NCBI GenBank assembly: GCA_020050435.1
Contig: JAGVKQ010000023.1
Coordinates: forward strand, 1-64,000
From: Candidatus Caenarcanales bacterium
Lineage (GTDB): Bacteria > Cyanobacteriota > Vampirovibrionia > 2-02-FULL-35-15
Direction: 5' to 3'
Length of the DNA stretch: 64,000 nucleotides
Shown here: piece by piece, positions 16,298 to 25,771 of the stretch
Layout of the letters: each line of letters opens with the position of its first letter
Position numbering within the stretch: the stretch's first letter is position 1
Notes under the pieces: model-generated
Database searches by the model: none
Seen by the model: the letters and a program-made list of their open reading frames with translations, nothing else
What the model was told of the DNA's origin: nothing
Translations under genes and position numbers: made by a program

Positions 16298-17682
16298 TGA
16301 AAAGTATAAAACTTTATGACTCACTAAAAAAAACGCAGCTCGATTACGACAGCTGTGGGAGAAGCACTATAAACATTTATAGCTGTGGTCCAACTGTATA
16401 TGATCACTCACATATTGGACATGCAAGGTCATCAATAACCTGGGATTTTATAGTTAGGTTTTTAAGATCAATTGGATACACAGTAGTTTGGACAAGAAAT
16501 ATTACAGACATTGATGACAAAATAATCAACAAGTCAAAAGATTTAAAAATGCATCCAGATAAGGTGGCAAGGATATATTCACATTCATACCATGAAGACA
16601 TGATAAACCTTAATGTAGACTGGCCAGATTATGAACCTCATGCTACACAATACCTCTCTCACATGTATAGCTTTATAGAGAAGTTAATTAAAAAGGGAGC
16701 TGCTTATGTAATTGATAGTGATGTATATTTTTCAATTGCATCATTCAAACATTATGGATGCTTAAAAGGTCAACCAGTAGAAGAATTAGAAAAAGGATTT
16801 GGAAGAGTAGAACCAAATCCTAGGAAAAAACACCCACTTGACTTTGCTTTGTGGAAAGGTGTAAAAGAAGAAAATGAGTATTCTTTTGAAAGTCCATGGG
16901 GAAAAGGCAGACCAGGATGGCACCTTGAATGTTCAGCTATGTGCGACTCTTTATATGGCACCAATTTAGATATTCACTGCGGAGGAGATGATTTAATTTT
17001 TCCTCACCATGAAAATGAAATAGCACAATCAGAAATGGCATCAGGTCCATTTGCAAGGTATTGGCTTCACAATGGAATGATTATGGTAAATGGGAAGAAA
17101 ATGGCAAAATCAGATGGGAATTTTATAACTATAAAAGAAGCATTAAAAACGACTTCAGGAAATGCAATTAGATTTTTTGTATTAAACAGCCATTACAGAA
17201 TGCCTTTAAACTATACAGAAGAAGGGATTCAAGCTGCACAAAATGGAATAAACAGATTATCAGAAGCACTATCTGATATAAACTTTAATCCCTATTTAAT
17301 TACAAGTATTGAAAATGATTTCATAAAAGAATTTAATGAGGTTTTATCAAATGACTTTAATAGCCCTCAAGCACTAGCAATTCTATTTAAAATTACAGAT
17401 ACAATCAACATAGAAAAGAATAAAAATAAAAAAGAGGAGCTACAAAAAACATTAATAGTCCTATCAAAAATATTAGGATTCAACCTGATTGATAATAATG
17501 ACATATCCCTAAAAGAAAATACTCTCAGTAAACTTATAGACAAATTACTAGGATGGAGAAGTGACTATAAAACTAAAAAAGAATTTGAGAATGCTGATAA
17601 AATTAGAAATCTTTTAAAAGACAGTAATATAGAGATAAAAGATCTTCCTAACAATCAAATCAAATGGCAAATAAAACTATGA
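16297..17682 (+). CDS. cysS: Cysteinyl-tRNA synthetase
   Basis: Charges tRNA-Cys. Class Ia synthetase of 461 residues with YSCGPTVYD (first zinc cysteine), HIGHARS, GWHLECSAM, the GGDDLIFPHHENE motif carrying zinc ligands, and KMAKSDGN in place of the usual KMSKS. The C-terminal helical anticodon-binding region has the common ending of the family. It is joined to ybeY by a one-base overlap and to the next gene by an ATGA overlap. Confidence 0.97.
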   Translation: MKSIKLYDSLKKTQLDYDSCGRSTINIYSCGPTVYDHSHIGHARSSITWDFIVRFLRSIGYTVVWTRNITDIDDKIINKSKDLKMHPDKVARIYSHSYHEDMINLNVDWPDYEPHATQYLSHMYSFIEKLIKKGAAYVIDSDVYFSIASFKHYGCLKGQPVEELEKGFGRVEPNPRKKHPLDFALWKGVKEENEYSFESPWGKGRPGWHLECSAMCDSLYGTNLDIHCGGDDLIFPHHENEIAQSEMASGPFARYWLHNGMIMVNGKKMAKSDGNFITIKEALKTTSGNAIRFFVLNSHYRMPLNYTEEGIQAAQNGINRLSEALSDINFNPYLITSIENDFIKEFNEVLSNDFNSPQALAILFKITDTINIEKNKNKKEELQKTLIVLSKILGFNLIDNNDISLKENTLSKLIDKLLGWRSDYKTKKEFENADKIRNLLKDSNIEIKDLPNNQIKWQIKL

Positions 17683-18530
17683 AAAAACAAACATTAACAT
17701 CCTTACTAGCACTGATTTTATTTCTTAATTCATCCATAGCCTTAAGTGCCAATGGAAAAGTAGAAGAGATCATTCCAAGAGAAGCCATCTTAACGAATTT
17801 AAGCAACCTCATCCTAAATAAAGATTGTGCTGAAGATATAACTAAGCTAGAAGAAGTTTTAAAAGTAAGAAGACCTAGAAATGTTTTTATAGAACATTGG
17901 ATCGTACAAGAATCGACAAATAAAAAACTATTAAAAGAAATAAGAAAAGTAACAAATAAATATAATTCAAAATTGTATTTTGTCACTGGAAAAAATACAT
18001 GGTTTGGTCAAAGAGCTGCTGAACATCTCATCCCGCTCTATAAAGAATATGGTAAATATATAGATGGCATTGTTTTAAGAATTGAACCAAATAGAGTAAA
18101 TATTTGGAGAGAAGATGATGACTCTATGAAAGTTCAAGTATTAAATCAGATGTTAGATGGATATGCCGCAGTTTATTCATTTGCAAAAAAAATTGGAAAA
18201 AGCTTTATTGTTGAGTTTCCATTTTGGTTAACTGACTTTCAAGGCCCAAAAAGAACATTTCCTGATGATGCCTGCATCTATGCTGATAAAGTTATTTTTC
18301 TCATAGATAATGAAGAAAAATTAAATACTATAAACATTCCTTGGAATGACATTACATGCCATTATCTTATTAATTTAGGGAAAAGGGCTACAAGACAAAA
18401 TGATGAAAAAATCAAAGAAATTTACCAAACCTTAAATAAAAAATTGATATTAAATTCAACTTTTAGTGGTTACATTATAGACTCAGACTCAAGTCTAGAT
18501 AATAAGATTGAAACGGATTCAGAAAACTAG
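17679..18530 (+). CDS. Hypothetical exported protein, possible TIM-barrel fold
   Basis: The family is not recognised. The start is placed at the ATG at 17679 because it overlaps the cysS stop as ATGA and begins directly with a signal peptide (MKKQTLTSLLALILFLNSS). The mature part alternates strands and helices, with acidic ends such as DGIVLRIEP and FIVEFPFW, reminiscent of barrel glycosidase-like proteins; this is only an impression. A basic segment LKVRRPRNVFIEHW is notable. The tail is acidic. Translational coupling to cysS is visible; any functional link is unknown. Confidence 0.72.
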   Translation: MKKQTLTSLLALILFLNSSIALSANGKVEEIIPREAILTNLSNLILNKDCAEDITKLEEVLKVRRPRNVFIEHWIVQESTNKKLLKEIRKVTNKYNSKLYFVTGKNTWFGQRAAEHLIPLYKEYGKYIDGIVLRIEPNRVNIWREDDDSMKVQVLNQMLDGYAAVYSFAKKIGKSFIVEFPFWLTDFQGPKRTFPDDACIYADKVIFLIDNEEKLNTINIPWNDITCHYLINLGKRATRQNDEKIKEIYQTLNKKLILNSTFSGYIIDSDSSLDNKIETDSEN

Positions 18531-18602: not shown

Positions 18603-19091
18603 ATGAATAGAATCTTTTCATTTATTTTGCTATTAATAGCAGTAAGCATGCCAGCAAATGCTTCAATTTTAGCTCTTCCACAAGAAAAGAATATCTCTAT
18701 AAAAAGTAGCTTTACGGGGAAATGGAAAATGAAGACTATTGTCACTTCATCAAGCTGCCCAGATATCTTAGTAGGAAGCACAACAGAATCAAAATTAATA
18801 ATAGGACCTGCAATTAAAGGACCTTCAAACCACATTAAAGCCTTATGGAAAGGTGGGGACTGGAAGCAAAGTAATGGAGTCTTAAAGCTATTAAATGACA
18901 AAGAAGCAATTACAGAAAGAATAACAAAGATAAAAACAAAAAAACATGAAGAATGGGAAGCGGTGTTAATTGACCACTTGAATCTTGATGAGAAAAACAC
19001 CATTCACACTGAAAGCATAGTAATACAATATAAAAATGGTGAGATTGTAGGGGAATATAAGACTTATTCAATTTTAACAAGAGTTAAATAA
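18603..19091 (+). CDS. Hypothetical exported protein
   Basis: The family is not recognised. The 162 residues begin with a signal peptide (MNRIFSFILLLIAVSMPANA). The mature protein looks like a small beta-rich domain: FTGKWKMKTIVTSS opens it and KNGEIVGEYKTYSILTRVK closes it, which could suit a lipocalin-like barrel. It has one cysteine in SSCPDI. It lies between the cysS-linked gene and kdpF on the same strand. Its role is unknown. Confidence 0.7.
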   Translation: MNRIFSFILLLIAVSMPANASILALPQEKNISIKSSFTGKWKMKTIVTSSSCPDILVGSTTESKLIIGPAIKGPSNHIKALWKGGDWKQSNGVLKLLNDKEAITERITKIKTKKHEEWEAVLIDHLNLDEKNTIHTESIVIQYKNGEIVGEYKTYSILTRVK

Positions 19092-19149: not shown

Positions 19150-19260
19150 ATGGAATTATTTCTAAAATTACCTTTACCAAATCTTGCATTGTTTGTATCA
19201 ATTGCATTGATGTTTATTTATTTAACAATAGCTTTATTTTTTCCGGAAAGATTTTTATAA
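19150..19260 (+). CDS. kdpF: KdpF, small stabilising subunit of the Kdp K+ pump
   Basis: A 36-codon gene directly before kdpA. It encodes a single membrane helix and ends with the KdpF-like PERFL. Its TAA (19258-19260) is followed with no gap by the GTG of kdpA. AAGG lies 6 bases before the ATG. In other bacteria KdpF packs against KdpA and stabilises the complex. Its length, membrane helix and place in the operon fit; the sequence itself is too short for proof. Confidence 0.85.
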   Translation: MELFLKLPLPNLALFVSIALMFIYLTIALFFPERFL

Positions 19261-20952
19261 GTGATAGAAGTCATCCTATTTATTGGAATTATATTAATGC
19301 TGGTAATACCAAGTGCATATTACTTAGGCATATTTATAGCAAAGACATTCAATGAAGAAATCTTTCCAGATGATATAAAATCTAAGGCTTGTTTACTATT
19401 TGAATCAATAGAAAACCCTATATATAAATTATGTGGCATCAATAAATCCCAAGAGATGACTGCAAAAGAATACTTTTTCACAATATTTTATACAAATATT
19501 TTATTATGCATATTTTCATTTTTAGTACTGTATTTTCAGACTAGTTTGCCATTCAAAGGAAATATTAATTTCCAGTTAGACATACCGATAATATTACACA
19601 TGCTTTCATCTCAAATAACAAACACTTGCCAAACCCACCATATTCCAGAACAGCACCTTACTCCACTCTCAAATTATTTCATTATGCCGCTTTTAATGTT
19701 CTATTCAAGCGCATCTGGAATTGCTACAGGAATTGTATTTATGAGAGCACTAATCTATGGAAAAATAGGAAACTCTTATGTAGATGTTATAAAAGCAATG
19801 ACAAGAATTCTCTTTCCTTTATCAATTATTTCAAGCATAGTTTTTGTCTCACTAGGAACGCCAAATACATTCACTTCATCAATAACGTATGAAACACTTG
19901 AAAAAGTCAAGGAAACATTACTATTAGGTCCTATAGCTTCATTTGAAGCAATTAAGCTCATAGGAGAAAATGGACTATCATGCTTAAATGCTAATTCAGC
20001 TCATCCTTTTGAAAGTCCGTCTTATTTAAGCAATTTTATTCAAGTATTTTGTATCTTACTTATACCAACATCATTACTTATAGTTTTAGGAATTTACTTA
20101 AAGAACATAAAACAATCAATAACAATAATTTCAGTTTTATATATTGTATTAATTTTTGAAATCCTCTTAATTAGTTTTTTTGAATTAAAAGGAAATGTAG
20201 AAATAAACAATATTATAGGACTTGATGCACCAAACTGGATTGGGAAAGAAACAAGATTTGGAATTGCAGGGGCGTCAATTTTTACAGCTCTGGTTTCAAA
20301 TGTTAGTGGATCAGCAAATTCTTCATTTGATGCATTCAACCCCATAGCTATTGCTTTAGCTTTATTCAACCTTTCAAATCAGTCATTTTTTGGCGTACAA
20401 GGTTTTGGATTAGTTTTTACTATAAATTTTATTATTTACACAGCATATTTAATTGGCTTAATGTTAGGTCGTACACCTGAAGTATTTGGAAAAAGAATTG
20501 AAAAAAAGGAAATAATTTTAAGCTCAATACTTATACTAATAAACCCAATACTTGTATTAACTTCCGTTGCGTTTACTCTAATAATGTTTCCTGAGAACGG
20601 GGGAAGCACTTTTGATCACATTCACTATTACACAAGAGTTTTCTATGAGTTTGCATCTGGTGCAGCTAGTAATGGCTCTGGATTAGAAGGACTTGATGAC
20701 AATAATGCATACTGGAATCTAAGCCTAGCTATTGTTATGTTTGTGGCAAGGTATGCAGCAATGTCATCAATGATTTTTCTTGGAGCCTCATTTGTAAATA
20801 AACCAACTATGCCAAGCGGAGTAGTAACGTTAAAAACAGACAATTTTTTATTTGGAACTGTATTTTTATTCTTTTCAATAATATCTACAGTTTTGACTTA
20901 CTTCCCTTTTATAATCTTAGGTCCAATTTCTGAAATATTAGCAAAGAATTAA
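19261..20952 (+). CDS. kdpA: Potassium-transporting ATPase subunit A, divergent pore loops
   Basis: Channel-like subunit of the high-affinity K+ pump KdpFABC in the inner membrane. The start is GTG, abutting kdpF. Family landmarks are ASGIATGIVFMRAL, LGPIASFEAIK, NANSAHPFESP, GKETRFGI and the closing GPISE. The four pore-loop regions differ from the usual consensus: loop 1 has TNTCQT where TNTNWQ is usual; loop 2 has ENGLSCLNANSAHPF where TNGGGFFNANSAHPF is usual; loop 3 has VSGSANSSFD where NGSVN is usual; loop 4 has GAASNGSG where AANNNGSA is usual. The length (563) is normal, so this is a full subunit with an altered filter, not a fragment. Confidence 0.93.
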   Translation: MIEVILFIGIILMLVIPSAYYLGIFIAKTFNEEIFPDDIKSKACLLFESIENPIYKLCGINKSQEMTAKEYFFTIFYTNILLCIFSFLVLYFQTSLPFKGNINFQLDIPIILHMLSSQITNTCQTHHIPEQHLTPLSNYFIMPLLMFYSSASGIATGIVFMRALIYGKIGNSYVDVIKAMTRILFPLSIISSIVFVSLGTPNTFTSSITYETLEKVKETLLLGPIASFEAIKLIGENGLSCLNANSAHPFESPSYLSNFIQVFCILLIPTSLLIVLGIYLKNIKQSITIISVLYIVLIFEILLISFFELKGNVEINNIIGLDAPNWIGKETRFGIAGASIFTALVSNVSGSANSSFDAFNPIAIALALFNLSNQSFFGVQGFGLVFTINFIIYTAYLIGLMLGRTPEVFGKRIEKKEIILSSILILINPILVLTSVAFTLIMFPENGGSTFDHIHYYTRVFYEFASGAASNGSGLEGLDDNNAYWNLSLAIVMFVARYAAMSSMIFLGASFVNKPTMPSGVVTLKTDNFLFGTVFLFFSIISTVLTYFPFIILGPISEILAKN

Positions 20953-20965
20953 AGGTAACAATCAG

Positions 20966-23014
20966 ATGGTAATAGCAAGAGATAAAAGAAAACACACTAT
21001 AAAAATAGACTACTCAGAAGTAGCTTTTAAAGCTTTTTTAGAATCAATTAAAAAATTAAGCCCTCATACACTGGTAAAAAACCCTGTAATGTTTTTAATA
21101 TGGATGTGCTCTTTCATCGGAATAGTATTAAGTATTAAACCCAATATTTTTGGACCTACAGAACTATCTCAGATAGATAACCTAGTAATTACATTGATTT
21201 TAATACTTACAATTTTCTTTTCAAACATGGCTGAAAATATTGCAAAAGAGATGGGCAAAGCACAAACAGACAGTCTAAGAATAGTACATGGTGACGTAGA
21301 AGTAAAAAAAATAAACGATGATGGAAGTATAGAGTATGTTTTCTCCTCCAAACTTGAAAAAGGAGACATGATAAAAGTACAAGAAGGTGATTTAATACCA
21401 CTTGATGGTGAAATAGTTGAAGGGATAGCAACTGTTGATGAATCAGCCATTACAGGGGAGTCATCTGTTGTATTAAAAGAACCAGGCACAGACACATCAA
21501 CCTCAGTAACAGGTGGAACAAGAGTAGTTAGTGATTGGTTATTAATAAAAATTACTGCTGAGCAAGGAAATACCTACATTGATCAAATGGTAAATATTGC
21601 AGAAAGCATTGAAAGGAAAAAAACACCAAATGAAATAAGTTTAAATGCATTGCTTATTGCTTCCACTATAAGCTTTTTATTAGTTGTAACTGTAATCCCA
21701 GTAATCCTCCACTACTTACATATAAAATATGAATATATTTATATAATTGCTCTTTTAAGCTGCTTAGCTCCGACTACTATAGGAGGGTTAGTTAAACCTA
21801 TTACAATTTCTGGCTTTGATAAAATCAATGCATTTAATGTTCTTGCTTTAACAGAAGATGCTATTGAAAAAGCAGGTGATATAAATGTGCTTTTCCTAGA
21901 CAAAACAGGGACAATAACCATTGGCAGCAGAATGGCAATAGAGTTTATACCAACAGGACATAATTCAATTCAAACTGTAGCAAAATCTGCTTTTCTTGCT
22001 AGCTTTTATGATCATACACCTGAAGGTAAATCAATTCTAAACCTTGCAAAAAGATATGTTGAAGATGTAGAGATAAAAAAAATAATTGGAAAGCCAATAG
22101 AATTTAGTGCTCATACAAGAGTAAGTGGCATAGACTTGGAAAACGGTGACATCCTTAGAAAAGGGGCAAGTGATGCTATAAAAAAAATAGTACAAAGTAA
22201 AAATGGTAAGATTTGGGAAAATACTGATCAGCTTGTAGATAATATTGCTTTACAAGGAGGCACGCCTCTTTTAGTTTCAAAAAACAATGAAGTAATTGGA
22301 ATAATTCACTTAAAAGATATTATTAAACCTATTATTAAAGACAAATTTAAAGAATTAAATTTAATGGGCATTAAAACTGTCATGTGTACAGGAGACAACA
22401 ATTTAACAGCTAAAGTAATAGCAAAAGAAACTGGCGTTAATGAATTTATTGCTCAGGCTAAACCAGAAGAAAAAATTAATCTAATTCGAGAATATCAATC
22501 AAAAGGTATGATTGTAGCAATGTCAGGTGATGGTACAAACGATGCACCAGCACTAGCACAAGCTGACGTAGCATTAGCGATGAACACTGGCACAGTAGCA
22601 GCAAAAGAAGCCTCAAACATGATTGATCTTGATTCAGATCCTACTAAAATAATAGAGATTGTAAAAATCTGCAGACAGCTTCTAATGACAAAAGGAGCAT
22701 TAACAACATTTTCAATTACTAATGATATATCTAAATACTTTGCGATTTTACCCAGCATATTTCCAATTAGTGGGCTTGAAGTTTTAAATATAATGCGCTT
22801 AGAATCCAGCCATTCAGCAATTATTTCTACATTAATATTTAATGCTATTTTAATTCCTTGTGCCACACCCATAGCAATAAGTGGTGTAAACTACTCAGCA
22901 AATGACCCAAACAAACAATTAACGGTCAATCTGCTAAGATTTGGAATAGGTGGCTTAATCATCCCATTTCTTGCAATAAAAATTATTGACTTAATAGTAG
23001 GGAGATTCATCTAA
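20966..23014 (+). CDS. kdpB: Potassium-transporting ATPase subunit B (P-type ATPase)
   Basis: ATP-hydrolysing subunit of KdpFABC. Phosphorylation Asp is D312 in DKTGTITIG. The dephosphorylation motif TGES is at 163-166; its Ser matches the inhibitory phosphoserine site known in E. coli (Ser162). The hinge GDGTNDAPALAQADVA and the class-specific MNTGTVAAKEASNMID follow. Length 682 is normal. It is 13 bases after kdpA and overlaps kdpC by one base (stop TAATG). Unlike kdpA, the catalytic motifs are conventional. Confidence 0.97.
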   Translation: MVIARDKRKHTIKIDYSEVAFKAFLESIKKLSPHTLVKNPVMFLIWMCSFIGIVLSIKPNIFGPTELSQIDNLVITLILILTIFFSNMAENIAKEMGKAQTDSLRIVHGDVEVKKINDDGSIEYVFSSKLEKGDMIKVQEGDLIPLDGEIVEGIATVDESAITGESSVVLKEPGTDTSTSVTGGTRVVSDWLLIKITAEQGNTYIDQMVNIAESIERKKTPNEISLNALLIASTISFLLVVTVIPVILHYLHIKYEYIYIIALLSCLAPTTIGGLVKPITISGFDKINAFNVLALTEDAIEKAGDINVLFLDKTGTITIGSRMAIEFIPTGHNSIQTVAKSAFLASFYDHTPEGKSILNLAKRYVEDVEIKKIIGKPIEFSAHTRVSGIDLENGDILRKGASDAIKKIVQSKNGKIWENTDQLVDNIALQGGTPLLVSKNNEVIGIIHLKDIIKPIIKDKFKELNLMGIKTVMCTGDNNLTAKVIAKETGVNEFIAQAKPEEKINLIREYQSKGMIVAMSGDGTNDAPALAQADVALAMNTGTVAAKEASNMIDLDSDPTKIIEIVKICRQLLMTKGALTTFSITNDISKYFAILPSIFPISGLEVLNIMRLESSHSAIISTLIFNAILIPCATPIAISGVNYSANDPNKQLTVNLLRFGIGGLIIPFLAIKIIDLIVGRFI

Positions 23015-23571
23015 TGACAGGTATCAGAGTTTGTATAATTACAATTTTACTAACATGCTTATATATTGTGTTTTCTGTAGGAGTAAGTTCAATACTATTC
23101 AACCAACACTCAAATGGATCGATAATAACTAAAAATGGAAAGATCGTAGGCTCAAGACTAATAGGACAAGAATTTACTAGCAACAACCATTTACACTCAA
23201 GACCATCTGCAAACAACTATAAAAATAATTTTTCAGGAAATTCAAACTATGCTTACAAGTCAGAAGATTTAAGAACTTACATTAAAAATAAATACAATAA
23301 CTTTAAAACAATAAATAATAATAGTGGTGATTTAAATATACTTTCAGAATCAGCATCAGGACTAGATCCTCATATAACCTATGAAGGGGCTACAGCTCAG
23401 ATAAAAAGAATATCATCCTCATCTAAAATAAGTGAAAATGAAGTGAGGGGATTGATAGATAAACATGCAAAGCCAAGGATAATTGGTTTATTTGGTGAAA
23501 AAATAATAAATGTAGTTGAGTTAAATTTAGATTTAAATAAATTGAGTAATAAAGATGCCAAAAAGACTTGA
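23014..23571 (+). CDS. kdpC: Potassium-transporting ATPase subunit C
   Basis: Single-span subunit that helps KdpB bind ATP. The N-terminal helix is at about 7-26. Family motifs GSRLIGQEF, HSRPSANNY and SASGLDPHITYEGA (usual LDPHISP) are present. The middle region after SRPSA lacks the usual YNP/ASGGSNLGP wording and reads SGNSNYAYKS. Length 185 is normal. It overlaps the following KdpD-like gene by 17 bases. Confidence 0.94.
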   Translation: MTGIRVCIITILLTCLYIVFSVGVSSILFNQHSNGSIITKNGKIVGSRLIGQEFTSNNHLHSRPSANNYKNNFSGNSNYAYKSEDLRTYIKNKYNNFKTINNNSGDLNILSESASGLDPHITYEGATAQIKRISSSSKISENEVRGLIDKHAKPRIIGLFGEKIINVVELNLDLNKLSNKDAKKT

Positions 23572-25771
23572 ACCAGATGAAATCTTAAAACAAATAGTTA
23601 AACTGTCAACAGGGAGACATAAAATTTACCTTGGCATGGCTCCAGGTGTAGGAAAAACTTGTAAAATGCTTGAAGAAGCTAGGGACTTGAAAAAAAAAGG
23701 TATCGATATTGTAATTGGTTATATTGAGAATCAAGGAAGATCTGACAACAATACCTTAATAGGTTATTTTGAATCCATCCCGAAGAAATGTTTTAAAATT
23801 AATGGCAAAGATTTTTTCGAGCTAGATGTAGAGGCTGTTATTGAAAGAAGACCTGCAACAGTAATAATAGATGAGCTGGCTCATTCAAACATACCAGGGT
23901 CATTGAATCAAAAAAGATATGAAGATGTTCAAGAAATATTAAAAAATGGAATTAGTGTTTTATCTACACTTAACATTCACCATTTAGAAAGTATTGCTCC
24001 TATTATAGAAAAAAATCTTGGAATTAAAATAAATGAAACCATTCCAGACTGGGTATTAAATCAGGCTAATGAAACGGTTTTAATAGATATTCCTATTGAT
24101 GATTTGCATGAGAGACTTAAATCAAAGAATATTTACAGTCAAGATCAGTTAAAACATGCTTACAAAAACTTTTTCAAAAGAAGTAATCTATTCCTATTAA
24201 GAGATTTAGCACTTAATGTACTTGCTGAAAGAGTAGACATTGAAGTTGTTAGCGAGAAACTAAAAGCAAAAATAAAAGACAGAATACTTGTAGCTTGTAA
24301 ACCTGAATTAAACTCAAATAGATTGATTAAACATGCTGGGATAATAGCCTCCATTACTCATGGAGATCTAGATGTTCTTTGCATTTTAAATGAGAAAGTT
24401 GAAGAGTCTATTACAACCTCTCTTAGAGAATCAACAAAAGAGTACAAAGGAAACTTTTTCCTTATTAAAGATTTAAAAAAAAGCATAGCTGACGAGCTTG
24501 TACATTTTGTTAAATTAAACAGAATTACTCAAGTCGTAATGGGACATCAAAAAGAGAAAAAAATTAAAGAATTATTTTCAAAAACAACACTTTTTGATCT
24601 TATGGGAAAAACAACAAACTTAGATATTCTTATAGTTGGAAGCAATGAAGAAGAAGGTTTCAACATCTTAAATAAGATTAGCGATGAAAGCACTATACAA
24701 AAACAAGAAAAACATAATTTTGGTAAATTAAAAATTCATATAGGAATGGCTCCTGGAGTAGGGAAAACATATAAAATGCTTCAAGATGCAAGAGCCTTGC
24801 ATGATCAAGGAAAAAATGTGTTACTTGGTGTCATAGATACTCACGGGAGACCAGAAACATCTCAAATGATGGCTGAAATGCCACTACTGCCACAAAAACT
24901 TATTCAACACAAAGAAAAATATATGCAGGAGTTTGATCTTGAAGGAGCAATACTTGCAAAGCCAGAATACATTCTAGTAGATGAGCTTGCACATACAAAC
25001 GTACCAGGATCTATAAACAACAAAAGATACCAGGATGTACAGTACTTACTTAGAGCAGGAATAAATGTTATGTCCACTGTTAATATTCAACACATAGAAA
25101 GCTTAAATGACATTGTAGAACAGGTGACTGGTATTAAAGTTAGAGAAACCGTACCTGATTGGATAATTTCTCATGCAAGTGAAATTGTACTAATAGACTT
25201 AAGTCCCGAAGCTTTACAAGAAAGATTAAAAGCAGGGAAAATATATTCACTAGACAAAATAGAACAAGCTCTTACACACTTTTTTCAAAAAAGAAACCTT
25301 ATAGCATTAAGAGAGCTTTCACTTAGAGAAGTAGCAGAAAGTGTTGAGCATGAACTTTATCCTAAAAATAAAAAGGGGAAGATTCTAAGCTTGATAGACA
25401 TAAATTCTGACACCTTAAGACTAATCAGAAAATCTGCAAGATTAGCCAGCAGACTACAATCAGAACTTATAGTAATGCATATAATTAAAGAAATGAAAAA
25501 GCTTAGCGAAGAAAAAAAGATAGCCATAATTGAACTTGAACAACTTATAGTAGAACTGGGTGGAGATTTCAGACTGGTAGAAAGCGAACATATTGTAGAT
25601 GAAATAGTAAATGCAGAAAAGAAAATAAAGCCAAGCTATGTAGTAATTGGCGAACCTACAAGAGATTCAAAATCAATTTTCACAGAATCAATAACTAAAG
25701 AAATTTTAAAGAGAATATCAAATCCACACATTTGGATCGTGGGGGATTTCACAAGAGAAAGTAACGATTAA
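23555..25771 (+). CDS. Tandem KdpD N-terminal domain / Usp protein without histidine kinase
   Basis: This 738-residue protein is two KdpD sensor modules in a row. Each has a KdpD nucleotide-binding domain with Walker A GMAPGVGKT (first with its Met at 28, second at 398) and a DELAHSN / DELAHTN Walker B, followed by a Usp-like domain (about 245-370 and 610-730). No four-helix membrane domain, GAF domain or histidine kinase follows. Kinase-less short KdpD proteins are known in cyanobacterial kdp operons, and the Usp domain of some KdpD proteins binds c-di-AMP. The doubled form here is unusual. It overlaps kdpC by 17 bases, so it is in the operon and probably senses K+ status or c-di-AMP for the pump. 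Confidence 0.9.
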   Translation: MPKRLEPDEILKQIVKLSTGRHKIYLGMAPGVGKTCKMLEEARDLKKKGIDIVIGYIENQGRSDNNTLIGYFESIPKKCFKINGKDFFELDVEAVIERRPATVIIDELAHSNIPGSLNQKRYEDVQEILKNGISVLSTLNIHHLESIAPIIEKNLGIKINETIPDWVLNQANETVLIDIPIDDLHERLKSKNIYSQDQLKHAYKNFFKRSNLFLLRDLALNVLAERVDIEVVSEKLKAKIKDRILVACKPELNSNRLIKHAGIIASITHGDLDVLCILNEKVEESITTSLRESTKEYKGNFFLIKDLKKSIADELVHFVKLNRITQVVMGHQKEKKIKELFSKTTLFDLMGKTTNLDILIVGSNEEEGFNILNKISDESTIQKQEKHNFGKLKIHIGMAPGVGKTYKMLQDARALHDQGKNVLLGVIDTHGRPETSQMMAEMPLLPQKLIQHKEKYMQEFDLEGAILAKPEYILVDELAHTNVPGSINNKRYQDVQYLLRAGINVMSTVNIQHIESLNDIVEQVTGIKVRETVPDWIISHASEIVLIDLSPEALQERLKAGKIYSLDKIEQALTHFFQKRNLIALRELSLREVAESVEHELYPKNKKGKILSLIDINSDTLRLIRKSARLASRLQSELIVMHIIKEMKKLSEEKKIAIIELEQLIVELGGDFRLVESEHIVDEIVNAEKKIKPSYVVIGEPTRDSKSIFTESITKEILKRISNPHIWIVGDFTRESND

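What the first reader, a model, noticed from the sequence alone, without database searches (positions are those of the whole stretch)
23555..25771. Tandem KdpD receptor modules with no kinase at the end of the kdp operon
The protein has two full KdpD-N plus Usp units in a row, each with an intact Walker A (GMAPGVGKT) and DELAH box, but lacks the membrane, GAF and histidine kinase parts. Kinase-less KdpD stubs are known in cyanobacteria; a doubled one is to my knowledge unusual. It may sense K+ or c-di-AMP and act directly on the pump or through an unlinked regulator.
Basis: partly seen in the sequence, partly recalled or inferred. Interest (0 to 1): 0.65.

Follow-up and report, generated by a model that had tools for sequence, protein, structure and literature searches.

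The report
Doubled serine-kinase brake on potassium pump
This gene encodes two fused copies of the small enzyme that switches off a bacterial potassium pump by phosphorylating it; the doubling is conserved across one bacterial family that has lost the signal molecule (c-di-AMP) known to control a single-copy version elsewhere, so what controls it is an open and testable question.

Summary
Window 23555-25771 encodes 738 aa with two complete KdpD-N + Usp units (38% identical) at the end of a kdpFABC operon. All 11 genomes held from the same family carry the doubled layout (unit 1 frame-broken in one); no other genome in class and phylum draws does. The reading needs changing. KdpD-N is an atypical serine kinase that phosphorylates the TGES serine of KdpB and shuts the pump (PMC11018627), so this is a doubled kinase lacking only its histidine-kinase part. 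Walker A, Walker B and the adenine arginine are kept in both units. c-di-AMP control is unlikely: diadenylate cyclase is missing from 11/11 family genomes but present in 270/278 others of the class. KdpE and a KdpD-type membrane kinase were not found. Unit 2 is orthodox. Unit 1 has fixed changes at about nine otherwise near-invariant positions, so it looks specialised. Ten of 11 genomes have two KdpBs and a single KdpD. The window's KdpA has a changed selectivity filter. Three relatives lost kdpF, kdpA and kdpC but kept kdpB plus the tandem. I file it as a new variant of the short KdpD serine kinase. Activity, target per unit and input are untested.

The parts
23555..25771 (+). tandem KdpD: two KdpD-N(serine kinase)+Usp units in one 738-aa chain
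23609..24235 (+). unit 1 KdpD-N (serine kinase) domain; Walker A at 23633-23659, DELAH (Walker B) at 23870-23884; about nine fixed unit-1-specific changes
   Evidence: 270 bits; model
24275..24637 (+). unit 1 Usp domain, least conserved domain (52% mean identity in the family), c-di-AMP motif not matched
   Evidence: NF038185 coverage; 7ji4 fold match
24638..24721 (+). inter-unit linker, not conserved (19% mean identity)
24722..25345 (+). unit 2 KdpD-N (serine kinase) domain, orthodox sequence; Walker A at 24743-24769, DELAH at 24980-24994; most conserved domain (87%)
   Evidence: 300 bits; 2r8r match
25379..25720 (+). unit 2 Usp domain
   Evidence: PF00582, stretch 609-722; protein E 6.6e-08
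19150..19260 (+). kdpF, 36 aa
   Evidence: by position and the LFxPERF-type ending shared with relatives, no family search run
19261..20952 (+). kdpA, divergent paralogue with altered selectivity-filter segments (GTG start)
20966..23014 (+). kdpB; keeps DKTGT and TGES (the serine that KdpD-N phosphorylates in E. coli)
23014..23571 (+). kdpC, overlaps the tandem gene by 17 bases

Best explanation
The protein is a stand-alone, doubled KdpD-type atypical serine kinase that brakes Kdp potassium pumps after translation. When K+ is plentiful it transfers phosphate from ATP to the serine of the TGES loop of KdpB and stops the pump. Unit 2 is an orthodox kinase unit. Unit 1 keeps the ATP-binding and catalytic residues but carries a fixed set of substitutions at positions otherwise near-invariant in KdpD, so it has taken on a different task; the favoured guess (about 0.35) is that the two units serve the two different KdpB proteins that 10 of 11 family genomes encode, since the tandem is the only KdpD. 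The input is not c-di-AMP, because the family lacks the cyclase; the Usp domains must read something else or only position the kinases. Shown: domain content, catalytic residues kept in both units, conservation of the doubling, absence of cyclase, KdpE and KdpD-type membrane kinase, two KdpBs per genome. Inferred from the E. coli and Deinococcus geothermalis enzymes: the kinase reaction, its target serine and its inhibitory effect. Guessed: one unit per pump, and the nature of the input.
For: KdpD-N alone phosphorylates KdpB S162; Walker A, D109/E110 and W39/R190 are needed, and a short KdpD/Usp protein from D. geothermalis phosphorylates E. coli KdpB (PMC11018627). In the tandem G36, K37, D109, E110 and R190 are kept in both units of all relatives aligned; T38 is kept or S (once); residue 39 is Y (F once; C in unit 1 of the window). 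KdpD-N1 and KdpD-N2 are the most conserved parts (76% and 87% mean identity, against 67% for KdpB, 52% and 65% for the Usp domains, 19% for the linker), with low dN/dS where it can be estimated. The TGES serine is kept in all 21 family KdpBs. The layout is in 11 of 11 family genomes, and the gene follows kdpB or kdpC in every one. It is the only KdpD in the genome. Short KdpDs without a histidine kinase go with absence of KdpE (PMC11018627), as here. Units 1 and 2 each form one clade at 100/100. 10 of 11 genomes have exactly two KdpBs, whereas other class genomes with kdpA show one apiece apart from split fragments.
Against: No kinase activity was measured. TGES is kept in most cation P-type ATPases for another reason, so its presence is weak support. 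One genome (G035, 94% complete) has a single KdpB but both units. The aromatic adenine residue is Cys in unit 1 of the window, which may weaken ATP binding there. Tandem, two pumps and cyclase loss all sit in one clade, so they are a single coincidence. In G045 unit 1 is broken by a deletion with frameshift (MAG; may be an error).
Confidence: 0.72

Rival explanations
1. Built-in dimer or regulated kinase: unit 2 does the phosphorylation, and unit 1 is a covalently attached regulatory partner (nucleotide sensor, docking arm or autoinhibitor) rather than a second kinase with its own target.
For: Unit 2 is orthodox and the most conserved; unit 1 has fixed changes H63Q, T68N, Q145H, H146Q (H in the window), P184I/V, G194K, A217L/M, E220D and R224N/S (E. 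coli numbers) at positions near-invariant in 31 reference KdpDs and kept in unit 2. The window's unit 1 has C instead of the adenine-stacking aromatic. G035 has both units with one KdpB.
Against: Unit 1 keeps every residue shown to be needed for catalysis in E. coli except the aromatic in the window's own copy; a purely regulatory unit would be free to lose Walker B. The full-length model is too poor to show an interface (pLDDT 60, pTM 0.36).
Confidence: 0.35
2. c-di-AMP sensor: c-di-AMP binds one or both Usp domains and activates the kinase, as in D. geothermalis KdpD.
For: The closest characterised relative by layout, short KdpD/Usp from D. geothermalis, is activated by c-di-AMP (PMC11018627). 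The Usp domain of unit 1 has as its best Usp fold match the c-di-AMP-bound KdpD Usp 7ji4.
Against: Diadenylate cyclase (PF02457) is absent from 11 of 11 family genomes (8 of them at least 90% complete) while the same search finds it in 270 of 278 other class genomes. The (A/G/C)XSXSX2N motif (PMC8214093) is not matched in either Usp; this is weak evidence because D. radiodurans short KdpD does not match it either.
Confidence: 0.05
3. Transcriptional control: the tandem acts through an unlinked histidine kinase or response regulator to control kdp expression.
For: In Anabaena and Deinococcus a separate two-component system controls kdp while the short KdpD stays in the operon (discussed in PMC11018627). 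The genome has 5 OmpR-type regulators.
Against: None of the 5 reaches the KdpE cut-off (about 138-165 bits against 325). The KdpD-type membrane domain DUF4118 is absent from all 11 genomes. No mechanism is known that links KdpD-N to a regulator without its own histidine kinase.
Confidence: 0.08
4. A decaying duplication without function.
For: Unit 1 is broken in G045 (L102) and the Usp 1 domain drifts fast.
Against: Both kinase domains show little amino-acid change relative to synonymous change, and the layout is kept in 11 genomes of 8 genera.
Confidence: 0.03

Closest known systems
Short KdpD/Usp atypical serine kinase (D. geothermalis KdpD Q1J2K3; cyanobacterial and Deinococcus short KdpDs; NCBIfam NF038185)
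   Same: Each half has the same KdpD-N + Usp layout, catalytic residues, position after the pump genes, and absence of the histidine kinase.
   Different: Two units in one chain; unit 1 has its own fixed substitutions; the family lacks c-di-AMP synthesis; one kinase chain stands against two KdpB proteins.
E. coli KdpD (tandem serine/histidine kinase of KdpDE)
   Same: KdpD-N with Walker A G-X5-GKT, Walker B DE and R190; Usp domain.
   Different: No DUF4118, GAF, DHp or CA domains and no KdpE; 'tandem' in E. coli means serine plus histidine kinase, here it means two serine-kinase units.
KdpD-N crystal structure 2r8r (Pseudomonas syringae) and KdpD Usp:c-di-AMP 7ji4 (Staphylococcus aureus)
   Same: Fold of unit 1 domains: TM 0.95 and 0.76 by target length.
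   Different: 38% and 20% sequence identity; c-di-AMP motif not matched.

Membership tests
KdpD domain family (PF02702) | KdpD-N domain with Walker A G-X5-GKT and Walker B DE | tested here: met
   Two copies, 270 and 300 bits against cut-off 26.1; residues
KdpD atypical serine kinase (short KdpD/Usp) | KdpD-N + Usp, no DUF4118/GAF/DHp/CA | tested here: met
   but the unit is doubled
KdpD atypical serine kinase (short KdpD/Usp) | catalytic residues K37, T38, aromatic 39, D109, E110, R190 | tested here: met
   Kept in both units across the family; exception: in the window unit 1 residue 39 is Cys
KdpD atypical serine kinase (short KdpD/Usp) | phosphorylates KdpB TGES serine and inhibits the pump | not testable with these tools
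   Target serine present in all 21 family KdpBs; activity needs an assay
c-di-AMP-controlled short KdpD | diadenylate cyclase in the genome | tested here: not met
   0 of 11 family genomes
c-di-AMP-controlled short KdpD | c-di-AMP motif (A/G/C)XSXSX2N(Y/F) in Usp | tested here: inconclusive
   Not matched in the window, but D. radiodurans short KdpD does not match it either
KdpDE two-component system | histidine kinase domains and partner KdpE | tested here: not met
   No HK domain; DUF4118 0 of 11; no KdpE
NCBIfam NF038185 KdpD_non_kinase | whole-protein score at least 550 bits | tested here: met
   690.6 bits, reached only by adding the two halves; each half scores 338-364 bits as a genomic match, and single-unit cyanobacterial matches also stay under 550

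The most novel reading that the evidence does not exclude
The tandem kinase and its KdpB neighbour form a regulatory pair that can exist without its own pump. In three genomes (G006, G018, G024) kdpF, kdpA and kdpC have gone while kdpB and the tandem stay; two of these KdpBs have also lost D583, which transport needs in E. coli, yet keep TGES and DKTGT. The left-over KdpB might be a non-pumping phospho-target or an exchange subunit for the second pump, with unit 1 specialised for one KdpB and unit 2 for the other.
Probability: 0.2. Interest if true: 0.78.

Novelty: new variant of a known kind. Interest (0 to 1): 0.56.

Why it matters
Short KdpD kinases were proposed to be run by c-di-AMP. Here is a whole family that keeps, doubles and strongly conserves the kinase while lacking the cyclase, so the kinase must have another input or none. 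It also gives a natural comparison of two kinase units with different substitutions against two KdpB targets, which would show which KdpD residues choose the substrate. The pump in the same operon has a changed KdpA selectivity filter, and three relatives keep KdpB without KdpA at this locus, which bears on what KdpB can do outside its own pump.

Tried and rejected
Assembly duplication: rejected (38% identity between halves, 11 genomes). c-di-AMP riboswitch in the window: Rfam at gathering scores gives only two tRNAs. Whole-chain AlphaFold model: too poor to read an interface. Joining of units 1 and 2 as sisters: unresolved (79/42, long branches), so in-lineage duplication versus fusion of two different KdpDs stays open. 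Independent tandem cases: none among 386 phylum genomes, among the class draw, or in the best 25 plasmid hits, which all span about 1.1 kb; other phyla were not surveyed. Genome-collection scan by peptide patterns found one single-unit cyanobacterial relative only. CBS-domain genes next to the second kdp operon: present in the window's genome but not conserved beside it in relatives. dN/dS values are rough, since synonymous sites are near saturation.

Full report
Observation. The ORF at 23555-25771(+) encodes 738 aa with two full KdpD-N + Usp units. The halves are 38% identical. The gene overlaps kdpC by 17 bases and follows kdpF (36 aa, 19150-19260), kdpA, kdpB and kdpC. It is the only strong KdpD in the 2.49-Mb, 96.6% complete genome. 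Unit 1, whose Usp domain Pfam misses, was modelled with 29 sequences (mean pLDDT 80) and matches KdpD-N 2r8r and KdpD Usp 7ji4.

Distribution. All 11 genomes held from the same family, in 8 genera, have the two-unit gene with an open frame of about 740 aa, except G045 where unit 1 is broken by a deletion with frameshift. In 289 genomes of the class and 386 of the phylum, no other genome shows two units in one frame; most cyanobacterial relatives have single units in frames of about 360-450 aa, and other families of the class have single units in frames of about 400 or 650-920 aa. Unit 1 and unit 2 each form one clade with full support, so the doubling is older than the family's split; whether the units are sisters is unresolved. 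The organism is probably a non-photosynthetic member of the cyanobacterial phylum: one regulator passes the cyanobacterial RpaB cut-off and the only named relative found is an uncultured cyanobacterium; the class is my inference.

What the domain does. Silberberg et al. 2024 (PMC11018627) showed that KdpD-N is an atypical serine kinase that phosphorylates KdpB S162 in the TGES loop and inhibits KdpFABC, needing Walker A, W39/R190, D109 and E110, and that short KdpD/Usp proteins carry only this activity; that of D. geothermalis is stimulated by c-di-AMP. So 'no kinase' is a misreading: what is missing is the histidine kinase. In the tandem the catalytic residues are kept in both units throughout the family, with T38 as S in one unit 1, and residue 39 as Y, once F, and C in the window's unit 1. 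The kinase domains are the best conserved parts: 76% (unit 1) and 87% (unit 2) mean identity, against 67% for KdpB, 52% and 65% for the Usp domains and 19% for the linker.

Asymmetry. At positions near-invariant in 31 reference KdpDs and kept in unit 2, unit 1 carries fixed changes (E. coli numbering): H63Q, T68N, Q145H, H146Q (H in the window), P184I/V, G194K, A217L/M, E220D, R224N/S. Unit 2 differs at two such positions (D54, R101). This is not decay, since unit 1 itself is conserved across genera. It suggests a changed partner or role.

Input. Diadenylate cyclase PF02457 was not found in any of the 11 family genomes, 8 of them at least 90% complete, while the same search found it in 270 of the other 278 class genomes. 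c-di-AMP control is therefore unlikely here. The Usp motif for c-di-AMP is not matched, but D. radiodurans short KdpD does not match it either, so the motif alone decides nothing. KdpE and the KdpD membrane domain are absent, in line with the finding in PMC11018627 that kinase-only KdpDs go with absence of KdpE.

Two pumps. Ten of 11 genomes have a second, orthodox kdpABC elsewhere (window genome: contig 14, L104); in the window's genome it has no KdpD of its own. The pump in the window is a divergent paralogue found, within the class draw, only in this family. Its KdpA keeps the central filter glycines G232, G345 and G468 but changes N114 to C, Q116 to T, T230 to E, G233/G234 to L/S, loses C344, and has E370 as Q; in E. 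coli, Q116 and G232 changes alter affinity or selectivity (PMC12629597). In G006, G018 and G024 kdpF, kdpA and kdpC are gone from this locus while kdpB and the tandem remain side by side. D583 of that KdpB is lost in G006 (S) and G018 (N) but kept in G024; D583 changes abolish transport in E. coli. TGES and DKTGT are kept in all.

Explanation. The best-supported reading is a doubled serine-kinase brake on Kdp pumps. One kinase chain against two KdpB proteins suggests that the units divide the targets, but G035 has both units and one KdpB, and all these traits are shared by one clade, so this is a guess at about 0.35, on a par with unit 1 being a regulatory partner of unit 2. No activity has been shown for this protein.

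Literature. Searches for a doubled KdpD and for KdpD in Melainabacteria gave nothing; the sections read of PMC11018627, with its survey of 5495 species, do not mention it. Subscription papers and UniProt architectures were not searchable.

Noticed in passing
window 19261-20952; relatives L094, L097, L099-L102: KdpA paralogue with altered selectivity-filter segments (N114C, Q116T, T230E, G233L/Q, G234S, C344 deleted, E370Q; G045 differs further), central glycines kept; family-specific within the class draw.
   Followed up: partly
L093 5676-7691(-), L095 5599-7611(-), L096 5922-7973(+): kdpB next to the tandem gene with kdpF, kdpA and kdpC lost; D583 lost in two of three.
   Followed up: partly
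11 family genomes: Whole family appears to lack diadenylate cyclase, which nearly all other genomes of the class have.
   Followed up: yes
L102 4716-6841: Unit 1 of G045 has an internal deletion (roughly 35-40 codons) with frameshift; unit 2 is intact. Could be a MAG error.
   Followed up: partly
L104 11775-13019: Two CBS-domain proteins directly after the second kdpC in the window's genome; not conserved there in relatives.
   Followed up: yes
L113 6806-8567(-): Second-locus kdpA of G050 is split into two frames.
   Followed up: no
L115, L116, L118, L120: Single-unit KdpDs of other phylum members carry an extra N-terminal stretch of roughly 130-190 residues, possibly receiver-like.
   Followed up: no
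window 17664-18530 and 18603-19091: Two proteins without any Pfam match; similar-sized genes with similar starts sit upstream of the kdp locus in relatives.
   Followed up: no
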